Origin: Ignavibacteria bacterium
Lineage (GTDB): Bacteria > Bacteroidota > Ignavibacteria > Tepidaquicellales > OLB5
Assembly: GCA_017303675.1 (NCBI GenBank)
Contig: JAFLBX010000001.1
Span: 1,499,970-1,563,969 of the forward strand
Direction: 5' to 3'
DNA length: 64,000 nt
The notes below the pieces were generated by a model. The model was not told the origin of the DNA and ran no database searches. It saw only the letters and a list, made by a program, of their open reading frames with translations. A program made the position numbers and the translations under genes. Below, piece by piece: positions 34,501 through 40,892 of this stretch; the stretch's first letter is position 1, and each line of letters starts with the position of its first letter.

Positions 34501-35301
34501 ATGAAACTACCAATATTCACAGTTGATGCTTTCACCAACGAACCCTTCAAAGGTAATCCCGCAGCAGTATGTTTACTAAAAGAAGATATCCCGACAAGCC
34601 TCATGCAGGAAATTGCATTCGAGCTTAATCTTGCTGAAACCGCATTCATACTTAAAGAACCTGAAAGCGATGTTTACAGCCTCCGCTGGATGACACCTGT
34701 CAGCGAAGTTGATCTCTGCGGCCACGCTACGCTTGCATCATCGCACATAATGTGGCAGGAAGGCATTGCTAAAAAGGATGAAACCATAAAGTTCAATACC
34801 CGAAGCGGACTGCTTACTTGCAAATATAACAACGGAAAAATTACTCTCGATTTTCCCGCGATACCACAGAAGGAAATTTCATACCCGCCTGAGCTTATCG
34901 ATGCAATTGGCGGGGTACAGCCAAAGTATGTTGGAATGACAAAATGGAATTATATCATTGAGCTTGGCAGCGAATCAGATATCATAAATCTGAAACCTGA
35001 TTTTAATGTGATGCTTAAGCTTCCGGGATGGGGAACCATCATTACCGCAGAAGCTAATATGCCGGGTTATGATTTCATCTCCCGCTTCTTCGCGCCTGAA
35101 AAAGGCATCCAGGAAGACCCCGTAACAGGTTCAGCGCACTGCGCACTTGCTCCCTATTGGCAGGGCAGGCTCGGCAAGAACACGTTCAAAGCCTACCAGG
35201 CATCAGAACGAGGCGGTACACTTGATATAGTTATTGAAGGCGAGAGAGTTATGCTAACCGGCGAAGCTGTTACTGTAATAAGAGGTGAGATAGAAGTATG
35301 A
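34501..35301 (+). CDS. PhzF-family isomerase-like protein
   Basis: 266 residues of the PhzF/diaminopimelate-epimerase-fold family. The N-terminal FTVDAFTNEPFKGNPAAVCLL, the LNLAETAFIL block with the catalytic Glu, the DLCGHATLASSH block and the late FFAPEKGIQEDPVTGSAHCAL block are all present. Most bacterial members are not in phenazine pathways, and no such genes are seen here, so the substrate is unknown. Its stop overlaps the start of the next gene by 4 bp (ATGA). Confidence 0.93.
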   Translation: MKLPIFTVDAFTNEPFKGNPAAVCLLKEDIPTSLMQEIAFELNLAETAFILKEPESDVYSLRWMTPVSEVDLCGHATLASSHIMWQEGIAKKDETIKFNTRSGLLTCKYNNGKITLDFPAIPQKEISYPPELIDAIGGVQPKYVGMTKWNYIIELGSESDIINLKPDFNVMLKLPGWGTIITAEANMPGYDFISRFFAPEKGIQEDPVTGSAHCALAPYWQGRLGKNTFKAYQASERGGTLDIVIEGERVMLTGEAVTVIRGEIEV

Positions 35302-36599
35302 ATTTTAAAATTATCGAATATTTAATAGGATTAATCGATGATTGGAAAACCCTAAAAGGTTTTTTAGTGATATCGCTAATATTTATTATAATTTCCATTT
35401 GGATTTTAAGTGACACATTTAATTCAACTATATTATTATTAATAATAATTCTTTTCATAATCTGGATATTTTTATGGCTATTTTTTTCACGTATATTCAT
35501 AATAGGAAATAATAATAAGAAAATAATTGCTATTGCTATATCTATCGACCCGGAAGTAAAAAGAAATTTTAAAAGAATAATAACTAGGGTATATAACTAT
35601 TTATCAGAAGAAAATTTAAGTAATGATATTAAATTTATTTTAATACCAAATGATTTGATTACAAATATCTTTAAAGCAAATAAATATCTAATAGAAAATA
35701 AATTAGATTTGATCTTGTGGGGTAATGGATTCTACGGAAATTTAAATAATGAAAAAGTATATCAATTTAAAATACAATATACACTTAAGATAAATGAATA
35801 TATAAAAGATAATTTTGAATTTTTATTAAATGATATTTCAAAAATTCTTTTTAACAGAGCATGGAATGTCAAAGAAGCAAACGAATTAGATGAAATAATT
35901 ACTGTATCGGATAATCTATTTGAAGTATGCTTATATATTATAGGTATATATTTTATATCGGATGATAAATCCGAACAAGCAATAAAATTGTTTAATAATT
36001 TAAAAATTTTCATCATAAAAGGGAATGCAGACAATTTATTAAAATCAGCAAGATTAGAGAAAATAGATAAAATGTTAGCTGAAGCATATTTTGTAACTGG
36101 TTTAAATGCACATCTTATTGGCGAAATGGAGAAGAGTAGGGATGCATTATTAAAAATTCCTGACTTAGTGATAAATAAAATTCCAATATACATCACATTA
36201 GCAAGAACATATTATTTTTTAGGCGATTTAAAACAAGCTAAATATTTTACTGATGAAATACGTTTATTAGATAAAAATCATTCGGTAGTATTCTTAAATA
36301 ATGCTTTTTTTAGTATTCTTAATAAAAATTACAAAAAAGTCAGATACTGGTATGAAGAATTTCGAAAATTACATCAAATTAAAGATTTAGATTTATATTC
36401 AGTTATTGAATTTTTAGAAAATGAGTTTAATAAAAATAAAAGCGAATTTGCTTACATTTATGGTTTAGCAATAGTAAATGGGTTTATCGATATAATTATT
36501 ATGAAAAGGGAGTTAAAAAAATTTATTACTAAAGCCAAGAAAAATAGGAATTATAGAACTTTAATTGAATCAGCAAACAATATCCTAAAGGAATTATAA
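35298..36599 (+). CDS. Very AT-rich membrane protein with TPR-like C-terminal half
   Basis: 433 residues, family not recognised. Two membrane segments near the N-terminus (about residues 22-42 and 48-70, both Ile/Leu/Phe-rich). A soluble part follows (IAIAISIDPEVKRNFKRIIT, then KLDLILWGNGFYGNLNNEKV) that could be a small alpha/beta domain. The second half has helix pairs like TPR repeats (AEAYFVTGLNAHLIGEMEKSRDALL, YITLARTYYFLGDLKQAKYFTDEI). Codon use is far more A/T-rich than all neighbours (many AAT, ATA, TTA), which suggests recent transfer, although it overlaps the PhzF stop by 4 bp. Confidence 0.7.
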   Translation: MNFKIIEYLIGLIDDWKTLKGFLVISLIFIIISIWILSDTFNSTILLLIIILFIIWIFLWLFFSRIFIIGNNNKKIIAIAISIDPEVKRNFKRIITRVYNYLSEENLSNDIKFILIPNDLITNIFKANKYLIENKLDLILWGNGFYGNLNNEKVYQFKIQYTLKINEYIKDNFEFLLNDISKILFNRAWNVKEANELDEIITVSDNLFEVCLYIIGIYFISDDKSEQAIKLFNNLKIFIIKGNADNLLKSARLEKIDKMLAEAYFVTGLNAHLIGEMEKSRDALLKIPDLVINKIPIYITLARTYYFLGDLKQAKYFTDEIRLLDKNHSVVFLNNAFFSILNKNYKKVRYWYEEFRKLHQIKDLDLYSVIEFLENEFNKNKSEFAYIYGLAIVNGFIDIIIMKRELKKFITKAKKNRNYRTLIESANNILKEL

Positions 36600-36670
36600 T
36601 ATACATTCAATTGAATTTTTTAATTTATGATTTATATCCACCATTTTTAAAAATTTATTTTCAAATTTTC

Positions 36671-36701
36671 TTGACACTAATTTAAAAAATTTGTAAGTTT
36701 G
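36671..36701 (+). promoter_or_regulatory. Bacteroidota-type promoter ahead of a putative small RNA
   Basis: TTG at 36671-36673 (within TTGACA) and TAAGTTTG at 36694-36701, matching the -33 TTG and -7 TAnnTTTG pattern with a 20-nt spacer. It points to the transcribed-looking segment that ends in the strong terminator at 36931-36967, not to an annotated gene. Confidence 0.6.
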
Positions 36702-36708
36702 TAATAAC

Positions 36709-36967
36709 ACAATTTAGAAGCAAATTTTAACTCACAAATATTTATAACTAACCAGAGCTTGTAAAAGGACTCTAAAACCAAAAAAAAATAAAATGAGAAA
36801 CGGCATTAAAATATATATGATCCAGAATACAGCACCTATTACAGGTCTCTTTGTGGACATTTTATGCCCGCTGGTTAGCGATAAACGGAGGTTTTTAGGA
36901 TAGAACCTCATAAAATACAAAAGTTTAAGCAAACCGCGGGTCATAAATAAGACTCGCGGTTTTTTTT
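36709..36967 (+). ncRNA. Candidate small RNA (or leader with a 36-codon ORF)
   Basis: A segment of about 260 nt between a good promoter and a strong terminator with no long ORF. It can form hairpins: GAG..CTC near 36756-36773, ACCT-ATTAC-AGGT near 36836-36846, and GAGGTT..AACCTC near 36889-36909. It is not a tmRNA, RNase P RNA or SRP RNA by any motif I know. A short ORF at 36793-36903 (starts MRNGIKIYM, ends KRRFLG, 36 residues) lies within it; it lacks a ribosome site and could be chance. A 450-bp intergenic region otherwise lacks genes. Confidence 0.45.
36931..36967 (+). terminator. Strong rho-independent terminator
   Basis: A 12-bp stem (AAACCGCGGGTC at 36931-36942 paired with 36951-36962, one G-T pair), loop ATAAATAA, then an unbroken run of eight or nine T. 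There is no plus-strand protein gene between the AT-rich gene's stop at 36599 and here. Confidence 0.9.
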
Positions 36968-36980
36968 TGTACAATAATTA

Positions 36981-37037
36981 TCCCGTCTTCCCCTTTACAA
37001 GGGGAGTGTCCCGCTGAAAGCGGGACGAGGGGGTCTA
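36981..37037. repeat. Composite palindromic repeat just upstream of the ABC exporter
   Basis: Two nested hairpins: CCCCTT-TAC-AAGGGG (about 36988-37003) and GTCCCGC-TGAA-GCGGGAC-type (about 37008-37026), inside an outer pair of CCCGTC.. and ..GAGGGGGTC flanks. It ends 12 bp before the start codon at 37050. Related to the repeat inside purL and to 46166-46183. Confidence 0.7.
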
Positions 37038-37049
37038 AATAATAATGAA

Positions 37050-38939
37050 ATGAAAAGTCTAAAGAAATTATTCGAAATATTAGGAAAATGGAAATATGAG
37101 TACATTGCAGCATCACTGCTGCTCATTGTTTCCGTTGGATTCAGATTGCTGGAGCCTAAAATACTCCAGATGACAGTAGATAAGATCATAGCTTTTTTTG
37201 TAACGGGCAAAGGCAACACCATTTCAGCAGATGACAGGATTACGAATTTCTTTTATTCCATACTGCCTGAGCTTAAAATAGAAAATTCCGGGATGATACT
37301 TGTTTATCTTGGGGTGATCTTTCTGATAATTGCACTGATGCGCGGAATAACAATGCTTTCATCAAGCGTAATTTCAGCAGCATCCACTGAAAAAGCTATG
37401 AAGAAGCTTCGTGACAGGCTTTTCAGCCACCTGCAGCATCTGCCTATGAAGTATTTCGGCAAAACACCAACAGGTGAGCTGATCCAGCGCTGCACAGGTG
37501 ATGTTGAAACGGTGCGTAAATTTGCAACCATGCAGGTAACGGAATCAATAAGACTTGCAACTATTTTCATAGGCGCATTTATTATGATGTTTTTGGTAAG
37601 CCCCTCTTATGCGTTTATCGCTATCACTTTGTTTCCTGTAATGCTTCTGGCATCAGTATTCTTTTTCAAAAAAGAAGGTGAAATATGGACAAGGCATGAA
37701 GCTGAGCAGGATAAGCTTACTGCGATGGTACAGGAAAATCTTTCCGGTATCCGTGTTGTGAAGGCTTTCGCGAAGGAAAATTATGAAATTGAAAAATTCA
37801 CAAAACAGAACGCCGAAAAACGAAGATGGGGAATGAAGCTGCTTAAGCTGCACTCAATTTATTGGCCGGGAAGCGATGTGCTTGTGTATACTCAGCTTGC
37901 GATATCAATTTTTGCAGGCGGGTATTACGTTCTTTCTAATCAGATAACTATTGGTGAATTCACCGCATTTTTTACATATGCTTCTTATGTAACCTGGCCA
38001 ATGCGAAGGCTTGCCCAGCTAGTTAGTGAAATGGGTATGACGCGTGTTGCTATCGAGAGAATTTATTCGATCCTTGATCATCCGGGCGAAGATTATTCAG
38101 GTTTTGATAATGATAATAAAGAATTAAGCGGACTGATTGAATTTGATAATGTGTTCTTTAAATATGAAGATGAAGAAGCCAATATCCTCAACGGTGTTTC
38201 GATGAAGATAAAACCGGGTGAAAAAGTGGCTTTACTTGGACCTACAGGTGCAGGTAAATCAACCATCATTTCTCTGCTTATGAAATTCTATGAGCCCGAT
38301 AGCGGCACAATAAAGATCGACGGAAGGAATATCAATGAATATTCCAGGCCGTATTTAAGAAGCAAAATAGGTGTGGTACTGCAGAAAGCATTTTTGTTCT
38401 CAACTTCAATTAAGGAAAATATCGCGTATTCAAATCCGGATACACATATCGAAGAGATTGTGGAATCAGCCAAGGTTGCAAATATTCATGATATAATAAG
38501 CGATCATTTCCCAAATTCATACGATACTGTGATTGGCGAAAAAGGAGTGACGCTTTCAGGGGGACAAAAACAGCGTGTAACGCTTGCCAGAACTCTGCTG
38601 AAAAATCCGGATATACTTGTGCTTGATGATTCAACATCTGCAATAGATACTGAAACGGAATTCGAAATTCAAAAAGCGCTTCGCGGAATAACAGCTGCCA
38701 AAACTACTATTGTTATTGCGCACAGGATAACATCTGTCCAGGATTGTGACAGGATCATTGTCCTTGATAAAGGCAGGGTTATTGAACAGGGAACTCATGA
38801 AGAGCTGATTGAAAATAACGGGTTCTACAAAAAAATATTCGATATCCAGGTTTCGATAGAAGATGAGATAAACGAGGATCTTGATAATGCAAAAGGCAAA
38901 AGTGAAAAGGAAAAAATTGAATCAGGTATATTAATATAA
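37050..38939 (+). CDS. ABC exporter half-transporter, subunit 1 (degenerate Walker B)
   Basis: 629 residues: an N-terminal six-helix export domain (residues 1-330) and a nucleotide-binding domain. Walker A LGPTGAGKST, Q-loop VVLQKAFLFSTSIKEN, signature LSGGQKQR, Walker B ILVLDDSTSAID and H-loop VIAHRIT. The residue after the Walker B Asp is Asp, not the catalytic Glu. This is the hallmark of the degenerate half of heterodimeric exporters such as TM287/288. The C-terminus has a 25-residue acidic/Lys tail. Pairs with the next gene. Substrate unknown (multidrug or lipid type). Confidence 0.92.
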   Translation: MKSLKKLFEILGKWKYEYIAASLLLIVSVGFRLLEPKILQMTVDKIIAFFVTGKGNTISADDRITNFFYSILPELKIENSGMILVYLGVIFLIIALMRGITMLSSSVISAASTEKAMKKLRDRLFSHLQHLPMKYFGKTPTGELIQRCTGDVETVRKFATMQVTESIRLATIFIGAFIMMFLVSPSYAFIAITLFPVMLLASVFFFKKEGEIWTRHEAEQDKLTAMVQENLSGIRVVKAFAKENYEIEKFTKQNAEKRRWGMKLLKLHSIYWPGSDVLVYTQLAISIFAGGYYVLSNQITIGEFTAFFTYASYVTWPMRRLAQLVSEMGMTRVAIERIYSILDHPGEDYSGFDNDNKELSGLIEFDNVFFKYEDEEANILNGVSMKIKPGEKVALLGPTGAGKSTIISLLMKFYEPDSGTIKIDGRNINEYSRPYLRSKIGVVLQKAFLFSTSIKENIAYSNPDTHIEEIVESAKVANIHDIISDHFPNSYDTVIGEKGVTLSGGQKQRVTLARTLLKNPDILVLDDSTSAIDTETEFEIQKALRGITAAKTTIVIAHRITSVQDCDRIIVLDKGRVIEQGTHEELIENNGFYKKIFDIQVSIEDEINEDLDNAKGKSEKEKIESGILI

Positions 38940-38970
38940 TAAATATATTTTGATTTGTGTTTCATAATAG

Positions 38971-39025
38971 CCCCGCCCTTTAGGGCGGGGGATTAATTAC
39001 ACCACAATACAGGGACTTTTGTCCC
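38971..39025. repeat. Two intergenic hairpin repeats between the ABC exporter genes
   Basis: CCCCGCCC-TTTA-GGGCGGGG at 38971-38990, an almost perfect 20-base palindrome, and GGGAC-TTTT-GTCCC at 39012-39025. The first is G/C-rich against an AT-rich background and not followed by a T-run, so it is more likely a dispersed repeat than a terminator. Confidence 0.65.
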
Positions 39026-39062
39026 AATTTATAAACAACAACGATTTTTAATTGCATATACA

Positions 39063-40892
39063 ATGTCAAAACTAAAAGATAAACAATTTAAAACTAAAGG
39101 CGCTTTATGGCCGTTCCTGCGGAGGCTGCTGAAATACAGCTTTCGGTATCCCAAATGGGTAGCAGGTTTTACGGGATTCGTATTGCTGGTTGCGCTTGTA
39201 GAAGCGGTTTACCCGCTTGTATGGCTTAGCCTGCTTGATAATATCATAGTGCCTGCTGTTGATACATACAAAAATACCGGTGTAATGCCTGAAGTTGATT
39301 CCACCGGACTCAGAAATTACGGGCTTATTTTTCTTGGACTTGGATTAACGCTTTCTCTCGGTGTATTCTGTTTCATTAACTTTGCCGGCAGGATCCAGGA
39401 ATATGTAATGTATGATATCCGCCAGGAGCTTTTTATCAAGCTGCAGGAATTATCGTTCTCATTCTTTGATAAATCCGCAGTAGGCTGGCTGCTCTCAAGG
39501 ATATCTTCTGATACCGGGAAAGTAACTGAGCTTATATCCTGGTCAATGATAGAAGTTGTATGGGGCGGCGGAATGATAATCTTCTGTGTTACATCTATGT
39601 TCATTTACAACTGGAAGCTTGCGCTTATTGTTACTTTAACAATTCCAGTTTTAACGCTGATTTCCTTCAAATTGCGTATGCTTATCCTTAAATACTCCCG
39701 TGAAGCGCGCAAGTATAACAGCGAAATGACAGCAAGGTTCAATGAACATATCAACGGTGTTGAAGTCAACAAAAGCCTCGTCCAGGAAGAAAGAGTAAGT
39801 GATGATTTTAAGGACCTGAGCACAAAAATGAAAGTATCATCTTATAAAGCTGCGTATTACCAGGCTATTTTTATGCCTCTGATAATCTTCGGTGGCTCAA
39901 TAGCTGCTGCATTTGTGATTTATTACGGCGGTTCGATGGCTATTACAATTCCTGCTGCAATTACAGTAGGTACGCTTGCTGCGTTTTTCGGTTATGCTAC
40001 TATGATATTTGAGCCTATCCTGGATATTTCAAGGTTCTATTCACAGGCGCAGAACAGTATTTCAGCAGGTGAAAGGATATTTTCACTTATTGATACCGGG
40101 GCATTGATAGTAAATAAGCCGAATGCCGGAAATTACGGAAGAATAAACGGTGATATCGATTTTGAAAATGTTTCTTTCCATTATGAAGAAGGCAAACAGG
40201 TATTGACTGATATGAACCTGCATATTGATGCCGGAACTTCAGTTGCATTGGTTGGTGAAACCGGCGGCGGCAAGTCAACTATAATCAATCTCATCTGCAG
40301 GTTCTATGAGCCGACAGGCGGAGTAATAAAGATTGACGGTTTGGATTATAAGGATAACACTATGGAAAGCTTAAGAAGCCAGCTTGGTGTTGTACTTCAG
40401 AGCCCGCATCTTTTCAGCGGTACTGTTAAAGAAAATATCAGTTACGGAAGGGAAGATGCAAGCGATATAGAAATTTTGAACGCATTGAGTGTTGTTGGAG
40501 CAAATGATTTCATTGAAAGGCTTGATGAACAGGTTGGTGAAGGCGGCGAACATCTTTCTATGGGTGAAAAACAGCTCATTTCATTCGCTCGAGCTGTACT
40601 TGCTGATCCCAGGATATTTATAATGGATGAAGCTACATCTTCAGTTGATACTTTAACTGAAGCAAAAATTCAGCACGGCATTGCCGGAATTATGGAAGGG
40701 CGTACATCGCTTATAATAGCTCACAGGCTTTCTACTATTAAACATTGCGACAGGATACTTGTAATAAATAAAGGTCGAATTGTTGAAGACGGAAGCCATT
40801 CAGACCTGATTAAAAAGCAGGGCGCATATTTCAGGCTGTATACCAGGCAGCTTAGAGAGCAAAGAGAAAAAGAAGTGATGAATGTGGCGTAA
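39063..40892 (+). CDS. ABC exporter half-transporter, subunit 2 (non-canonical signature)
   Basis: 609 residues, same six-helix plus ATPase plan. Walker A GETGGGKST, Q-loop VVLQSPHLFSGTVKEN, Walker B FIMDEATSSVD with the catalytic Glu present, and H-loop IIAHRLS. The ABC signature is LSMGEKQL in place of LSGGQ. In heterodimeric exporters the degenerate site is made of the Walker B-altered half and the partner's altered signature; exactly that pair is seen here. Separated from subunit 1 by 123 bp holding two hairpin repeats. Confidence 0.92.
   Translation: MSKLKDKQFKTKGALWPFLRRLLKYSFRYPKWVAGFTGFVLLVALVEAVYPLVWLSLLDNIIVPAVDTYKNTGVMPEVDSTGLRNYGLIFLGLGLTLSLGVFCFINFAGRIQEYVMYDIRQELFIKLQELSFSFFDKSAVGWLLSRISSDTGKVTELISWSMIEVVWGGGMIIFCVTSMFIYNWKLALIVTLTIPVLTLISFKLRMLILKYSREARKYNSEMTARFNEHINGVEVNKSLVQEERVSDDFKDLSTKMKVSSYKAAYYQAIFMPLIIFGGSIAAAFVIYYGGSMAITIPAAITVGTLAAFFGYATMIFEPILDISRFYSQAQNSISAGERIFSLIDTGALIVNKPNAGNYGRINGDIDFENVSFHYEEGKQVLTDMNLHIDAGTSVALVGETGGGKSTIINLICRFYEPTGGVIKIDGLDYKDNTMESLRSQLGVVLQSPHLFSGTVKENISYGREDASDIEILNALSVVGANDFIERLDEQVGEGGEHLSMGEKQLISFARAVLADPRIFIMDEATSSVDTLTEAKIQHGIAGIMEGRTSLIIAHRLSTIKHCDRILVINKGRIVEDGSHSDLIKKQGAYFRLYTRQLREQREKEVMNVA

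What the first reader, a model, noticed from the sequence alone, without database searches (positions are those of the whole stretch)
36671..36967. Promoter and strong terminator bracket a segment with no long ORF: possible new small RNA
TTG-20-TAAGTTTG promoter at 36671-36701 and a 12-bp GC-rich terminator with a long U-run at 36931-36967 enclose about 260 nt with several possible hairpins. It fits none of tmRNA, RNase P, SRP or 6S patterns that I know. A 36-codon ORF (36793-36903) inside could be a small protein instead.
Basis: partly seen in the sequence, partly recalled or inferred. Interest (0 to 1): 0.55.

Follow-up and report, generated by a model that had tools for sequence, protein, structure and literature searches.

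The report
Leader-peptide switch before exporter genes
The stretch is probably not a free-standing small RNA but a conserved on/off leader in front of a drug-exporter-type gene pair, in which translation of a tiny peptide would decide whether transcription stops early or runs on into the exporter genes.

Summary
In detail: promoter-like TTG-20-TAAGTTTG, 12-bp terminator with U-run, 36-codon ORF. Comparison changes the reading. In 28 of 28 genomes of the order that hold an ortholog of the ABC exporter gene at 37050 (31 gene copies), and in one Candidatus Kapaibacterium contig, a leader of this design lies just upstream of that gene (32 leaders). Each has an ORF of 33-43 codons ending 25-32 nt before the terminator core, and a segment inside the ORF (B) complementary to the terminator's 5' arm (C), in the same codon phase in 32 of 32. 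B:C would be an antiterminator. Three of six core pairs show two-sided changes, and pairing beats slid and shuffled controls, though one stricter permutation is only borderline. A 5'-UTR segment (A) that can pair with B beats shuffles in 22 of 32. Best explanation: a ribosome-mediated transcription attenuator with leader peptide that works like Bacillus bmrB-bmrCD but shows no sign of being the same sequence family. It would turn on a heterodimeric ABC exporter when leader translation is slowed, probably by ribosome-targeting antibiotics. The switch in cells, the antibiotic signal and the stall site are inferred. No Rfam family reached its threshold.

The parts
36671..36701 (+). promoter-like element, TTG-20 nt-TAAGTTTG
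   Evidence: similar -7 element in 29 of 32 leaders with a permissive pattern; promoter type recalled
36748..36755 (+). segment A, CUAACCAG, can pair with 36871-36878 (possible anti-antiterminator)
   Evidence: A:B reached by at most 11 of 400 shuffles in 22 of 32 leaders
36793..36903 (+). leader ORF, 36 codons
   Evidence: ORF in the same phase relative to B in 32 of 32, 33-43 codons; pN/pS 0.57 in frame against 1.17 and 1.06 in the other frames
36835..36837 (+). Pro codon 15 of A-P, candidate stall point (proposal)
   Evidence: Pro 6-17 codons before B in 27 of 32, preceded by Ala or Ser in 19 of 32
36866..36876 (+). segment B, GCCCGC(U)GGUU, antiterminator strand inside the ORF
36886..36891 (+). 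CGGAGG (Arg-Arg codons); GGAGG ends 9 nt before the stop codon
   Evidence: GGAGG 7-12 nt before the stop in 25 of 32; no null run
36888..36909 (+). small hairpin holding the leader stop codon
   Evidence: clearly better than shuffles in only 10 of 32
36932..36941 (+). segment C, AACCGCGGGU, 5' arm of the terminator and partner of B
36951..36968 (+). segment D, 3' arm of the terminator, and U-run
37050..38939 (+). ABC exporter half 1 (LSGGQ; LDDSTS, degenerate Walker B)
39063..40892 (+). ABC exporter half 2 (LSMGE; MDEATS)
   Evidence: follows half 1 in 12 of 13 loci L087-L099, the locus of the other (L088) ending about at the end of half 1

Best explanation
36671-36968 is the 5' leader of the ABC exporter genes 37050-40892 and works as a ribosome-mediated transcription attenuator. 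RNA polymerase makes segment A, the leader ORF with segment B inside it, then C and D. When ribosomes translate the leader ORF without trouble they cover B while C and D are made; C pairs with D, the terminator forms and transcription stops (off). When a ribosome is held earlier in the ORF, B is free as C emerges, B pairs with C, the terminator cannot form and the polymerase runs on into the exporter genes (on). A can pair with B and may lower background read-through. Shown from sequence: the parts, their conservation, the mutually exclusive complementarities, the ORF, the tie to the exporter. Inferred: that the switch happens in cells, that the signal is translation slowed by ribosome-targeting antibiotics, that the exporter removes such drugs. 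The [A/S]-P at codons 14-15 is a proposed stall point.
For: Leader directly upstream of the exporter in 31 of 31 gene copies (28 genomes) and one Kapaibacterium. ORF in all 32, constant place, same phase to B; in-frame pN/pS 0.57. B:C best duplex -12.6 to -21.0 kcal/mol in 31 leaders; at most 10 of 500 shuffles as good in 25 of 32. Core pairs formed in 95.2% of 186 cells against 25-51% when slid; two-sided changes at 3 of 6 pairs, covariation score reached by 0 of 500 shuffles. The terminator string occurs 27 times in 43 genomes of the order, 25 at this leader. Masking a ribosome over B abolishes B:C in 10 of 11 leaders folded. Exporter halves have the complementary degenerate motifs of heterodimeric exporters. 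Precedent: bmrB-bmrCD (PMC4191407).
Against: B and C cores hardly vary; with the 19 distinct B/C combinations 329 of 5000 permutations pair as well, and the number of pair types is not above shuffles. B:C is not clearly better than shuffles in 7 of 32. G010 joins one type of B to the other type of C with a mismatch. A:B is not clear in 10 of 32. At equilibrium B:C already forms without a ribosome in the window (0.96) and in most of the 11 folded, so 'off without translation' is not predicted. With a ribosome held early, B:C is 0.9 or more at all codons 0-18 in 5 of 11 leaders, between about 0.4 and 0.97 in 4, 0.33-0.45 in G009, near 0 in the Kapaibacterium, where the script chose another B. 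A ribosome at the stop codon leaves B:C at 0.94-0.97 in the window if it only masks its footprint, 0 if it also blocks pairing across it. No transcript, ribosome or drug data exist here.
Confidence: 0.8

Rival explanations
1. A free-standing small RNA of about 265 nt acting in trans.
For: Promoter and strong terminator enclose a well-folding RNA; a terminated short RNA should exist under any reading.
Against: It always lies before the same gene (31 of 31 copies), holds a conserved ORF, and its terminator arm stays complementary to the ORF.
Confidence: 0.05
2. A riboswitch: a small molecule bound by the leader RNA decides between B:C and C:D, and the ORF is incidental.
For: A terminator with a competing pairing before a transporter is also riboswitch anatomy; B:C can form without a ribosome.
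Against: No conserved aptamer-like block is seen between A and B beyond the ORF (read by eye), no Rfam riboswitch match, and the ORF is under coding constraint and in fixed phase.
Confidence: 0.05
3. A functional microprotein (for example acting on the exporter) encoded before a plain terminator.
For: Conserved length and in-frame pN/pS of 0.57.
Against: Between genera the residues vary except largely where the RNA pairs: P over B, R-R over the stop-codon hairpin. The terminator sequence is conserved beyond what a plain terminator needs and stays complementary to the ORF.
Confidence: 0.06

Closest known systems
bmrB-bmrCD leader of Bacillus subtilis (PMC4191407)
   Same: Leader ORF, terminator, antiterminator and anti-antiterminator before a two-gene multidrug ABC exporter; translation of the ORF needed for drug-induced read-through there (abstract, sections 14, 15 and part 1 of 17 read). 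YheH chains, recalled to be BmrD, are among the solved-structure hits of half 2.
   Different: There the ORF has 53 amino acids and the terminator lies inside it; here the ORF of 36 codons stops before the terminator, and B lies inside the ORF. Other phylum. The two leader sequences were not aligned. Drug response here untested.
msrDL-msrD leader of streptococci (PMC10314930)
   Same: Drug-sensing leader ORF followed by an intrinsic terminator; read-through on stalling (abstract and section 7 seen).
   Different: There the stalled ribosome itself obstructs the terminator, the peptide is very short (recalled) and the output is an ABC-F ribosome protector, not an exporter.
trp-operon type attenuators
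   Same: 1:2, 2:3, 3:4 logic (here A:B, B:C, C:D) read by a translating ribosome (recalled; outlined in PMC4191407).
   Different: No run of one regulatory codon in the leader peptides; segment 1 lies before the ORF and segment 2 inside it; output is an exporter.
ABC-leaders of a survey of premature terminators (PMC2965389)
   Same: Attenuators before ABC transporter genes, one before a multidrug export operon of lactobacilli (passages only).
   Different: The passages seen do not mention this lineage; sequences were not compared.

Membership tests
Ribosome-mediated transcription attenuator | Intrinsic terminator between promoter and first structural gene | tested here: met
   terminator present in 32 of 32 leaders
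Ribosome-mediated transcription attenuator | Translatable leader ORF in a constant place before the terminator | tested here: met
   (32 of 32); coding constraint in 15 copies of the window's family; translation itself not shown
Ribosome-mediated transcription attenuator | Antiterminator mutually exclusive with the terminator, supported by comparison | tested here: met
   the strictest permutation is only borderline (329 of 5000)
Ribosome-mediated transcription attenuator | Anti-antiterminator (A:B) | tested here: inconclusive
   better than shuffles in 22 of 32, not in 10; does not outcompete B:C at equilibrium in most leaders folded
Ribosome-mediated transcription attenuator | Read-through depends on ribosome position on the leader ORF | not testable with these tools
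   only folding with masked footprints
bmrB-bmrCD type | Output is a heterodimeric multidrug ABC exporter | tested here: inconclusive
   two adjacent half-transporters with complementary degenerate motifs; substrate unknown
bmrB-bmrCD type | Induction by ribosome-targeting antibiotics | not testable with these tools
   needs a reporter experiment
bmrB-bmrCD type | Sequence homology of the leader to bmrB | not tested
   bmrB sequence not fetched; upstream regions of five Firmicutes homologs were only read by eye and no such leader was seen
Rfam families (tmRNA, RNase P, SRP, 6S, riboswitches and others) | Match at gathering score | tested here: not met
   0 matches in the window

The most novel reading that the evidence does not exclude
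The leader carries a ribosome 'brake' and a second sensor. A Shine-Dalgarno-like GGAGG ends exactly 9 nt before the leader stop codon in 21 of 32 leaders (7-12 nt in 25 of 32), in a genome whose 16S rRNA keeps the anti-SD while SD-like tetramers precede only 9 of 36 starts checked. It would park the terminating ribosome over the switch and keep it off. Many leaders also have a 1-8-codon ORF just before the leader ORF (MKTRK, MRIRH, MKI) whose stalled ribosome would mask A, so that two ORFs sense different drugs. No null was run for either feature; the window itself has at most a start-stop TTG-TAA there; and a ribosome at the stop blocks B:C only if it blocks pairing across itself.
Probability: 0.12. 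Interest if true: 0.7.

Novelty: new member of a known kind. Interest (0 to 1): 0.42.

Why it matters
If true, it extends leader-peptide attenuation of a multidrug-type ABC exporter, worked out in Bacillus bmrBCD, to Ignavibacteria-type bacteria and one Kapaibacterium, with 32 aligned examples that make the mechanism directly testable. It would also give a likely role (drug-induced export) to exporters known here only from genome and metagenome assemblies, and it shows how a seeming small RNA next to a terminator can be a translation sensor.

Tried and rejected
Stand-alone RNA, riboswitch and microprotein readings were weighed (see rivals). A B-C-D pattern over 395 genomes of the phylum found nothing; it requires TCCGTGG, which the window itself does not match, and the sample held only 3 genomes of the order, so it says little. 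The CGGAGG-based pattern matched 17 of 391 genomes of the class, all in the order. A search with the Kapaibacterium exporter over 395 genomes of the phylum found orthologs at E 1e-40 in 2, the own genome and one of its genus; no further Kapaibacterium was examined. The mini-ORFs are a lead only: A-rich leaders give short ORFs with K, R, I and T by chance. The stop-codon hairpin beats shuffles at 10 of 200 or fewer in 10 of 32; '30 of 32 enclosed' has no null and is not used. The start codon of each leader ORF was my choice; for G031 a longer in-frame ORF (56 codons) is also open. In some searches B was located by a CCG-GG type motif or by eye (G014, Kapaibacterium), which favours pairing; one search is the test free of that. 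In one search the motif picked a wrong place in some rows; one search replaced it. No covariance model and no structure prediction were run.

Full report
What was checked. The RNA 36703-36970 folds better than 200 of 200 dinucleotide shuffles (z -4.3). Rfam has no match in the window at gathering score and 13 sub-threshold ones in 36600-37100, taken as chance.

Where it is. The window lies on contig C1 of a 3.65-Mb genome. The nearest named relatives found through the exporter gene are assemblies called Ignavibacteria, Ignavibacteriae, Chlorobi or Chlorobiota. Downstream of the finding are two ABC half-transporters, 37050-38939 and 39063-40892, each with ABC_membrane and ABC_tran domains. Half 1 has LSGGQ and LDDSTS, half 2 has LSMGE and MDEATS; that one degenerate Walker B and one degenerate signature mark heterodimeric exporters is recalled. 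Half 2 follows half 1 in 12 of the 13 loci L087-L099; the locus of the thirteenth ends about there.

Conservation and position. DNA search matches 16 of 99 genomes, own included. The exporter's first 170 residues find orthologs in 28 of 43 genomes of the order, own included. In these 28, counting four copies in G006 and so 31 of 31 gene copies, the region upstream holds a terminator of this type and an ORF ending shortly before it. Two genomes of the genus, G011 (94% complete) and G007 (64%), match neither search. A Candidatus Kapaibacterium contig with a 52%-identical exporter has the leader too, which makes 32 leaders. In a sample of 395 genomes of the phylum only the own genome and one of its genus hold an ortholog at E 1e-40.

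The terminator arm. The string AACCGCGG-(6-30)-CGCGGTTTTT occurs 27 times in 43 genomes of the order, the reversed control never; 25 of the 27 are at this leader. The other two (G025, G024) follow ordinary coding sequence and show no such leader by eye. A plain terminator needs pairing, not this sequence, so a second partner is likely.

The second partner. Segment B inside the ORF is complementary to C. The best duplex is -12.6 to -21.0 kcal/mol in the 31 leaders. In 25 of 32 leaders at most 10 of 500 shuffles of the region do as well; above that line are G006a, b, c, G009, G016, G028 and the Kapaibacterium. By hand register 8 to 11 of 11 positions pair in each of the 32, 310 of 352 cells in all. 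In an alignment of 31 leaders six core pairs are formed in 95.2% of 186 cells, against 25-51% when the partner is slid by 1-3 columns; three pairs have two-sided changes, and the covariation score is reached by 0 of 500 shuffles, while the number of pair types is not above shuffles. Such shuffles do not correct for relatedness. C:D pairs are formed in 96.8% of 340 cells. G014 has a different C arm and a B that pairs with it at 9 of 11 positions. Against: with all 32 rows 1 of 5000 permutations reaches the observed pairing, but with the 19 distinct B/C combinations 329 of 5000 do, and G010 combines one type of B with the other type of C at the cost of one mismatch.

Segment A. The 5' leader holds a stretch complementary to B, CUAACCAG in the window. 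A:B is reached by at most 11 of 400 shuffles in 22 of 32 leaders and by more in G008, G009, G014, G016, G018, G031, G033, G042, G006d and the Kapaibacterium. A is common, not universal.

The ORF. All 32 leaders have an ORF of 33-43 codons whose stop lies 25-32 nt before the C core, with the CCG position of B in the same codon phase in 32 of 32; starts were my choice. In 15 copies from the window's family (14 of its genus) pN/pS over codons 1-24 is 0.57, while the two other frames give 1.17 and 1.06. The residues most alike between genera (P over B, R-R after it) sit where the RNA pairs, so they may reflect RNA constraint. A proline 6-17 codons before B occurs in 27 of 32, preceded by Ala or Ser in 19 of 32.

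How it most likely works. Eleven leaders were folded up to the end of C with a masked ribosome footprint. In 10 of 11 B:C falls to about zero while the ribosome covers B (P-site codons 22-30 in the window, a few codons later in some). With the ribosome earlier, codons 0-18, B:C is 0.9 or more in G000, G005, G001, G027 and G042, about 0.4-0.97 in G013, G030, G021 and G034, 0.33-0.45 in G009, and near zero in the Kapaibacterium, where the script had chosen another stretch as B. So a freely moving ribosome would cover B while C and D are made and the terminator forms; a ribosome held early would leave B free for C. Two points do not follow from this folding. First, without any ribosome B:C is already 0.96 in the window and 0.35-0.98 in the other nine, so an untranslated leader is not predicted to be off, although in bmrB loss of the start codon lowered read-through (PMC4191407). 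Second, a ribosome at the stop codon blocks B:C only if it also hinders pairing across itself. A:B and the speed of folding may settle both; that is inference. The [A/S]-P at codons 14-15 is a reasonable stall point: chloramphenicol and linezolid arrest best with alanine, less with serine or threonine, in the penultimate position (PMC8987054, passages seen), and a ribosome there leaves B free. This is a proposal, not a result.

Comparison. bmrB-bmrCD (PMC4191407; abstract, sections 14, 15 and part 1 of 17 read) is closest in logic and output. msrDL-msrD (PMC10314930; abstract and section 7) and toiL (PMC12121999; abstract and section 13) are other antibiotic-sensing leader ORFs. A survey of premature terminators (PMC2965389; passages) reports many attenuated ABC transporter genes. 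In the held open-access library five searches (titles and abstract starts of the papers listed) showed no paper on this leader; one search listed 12 of 17 papers, and nothing outside that library was searched.

Verdict. A conserved cis-acting attenuator with leader peptide: not covered by Rfam, known as a kind. Shown: the anatomy and its conservation. Inferred: the switch in the cell, the drug signal and the stall site.

Noticed in passing
35298-36599: 433-aa AT-rich ORF with no Pfam match, between the PhzF-like gene (34501-35301) and the leader. In L007, L010 and L013 what reads by eye as the end of the PhzF-like gene lies directly before the leader, so the ORF may be an insertion in the window's genome.
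   Followed up: partly
36975-37040: Palindromic stretches (CCCCTTTACAAGGGG, TCCCGCTGAAAGCGGGA) between terminator and exporter start; similar ones read by eye before the exporter in G005 and G010.
   Followed up: no
L010, L019, L021, L022: Genome G006 holds four leader-exporter copies on four contigs; it is listed at 6% contamination, so strain mixture or true paralogs.
   Followed up: no
L006 and L018: In G010 the leader is found at the ends of two contigs, so probably one leader split by the assembly.
   Followed up: no
36 ATG starts of window ORFs of at least 200 aa: SD-like tetramers precede 9 of 36 starts (11% in random places) although the 16S rRNA end GGATCACCTCCTTT is intact; 8 ORFs with TTG or GTG starts were left out.
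   Followed up: partly
36886-36891: The Arg-Arg pair is written CGG AGG, although CGG is 4% of 498 Arg codons in the window genes counted.
   Followed up: partly
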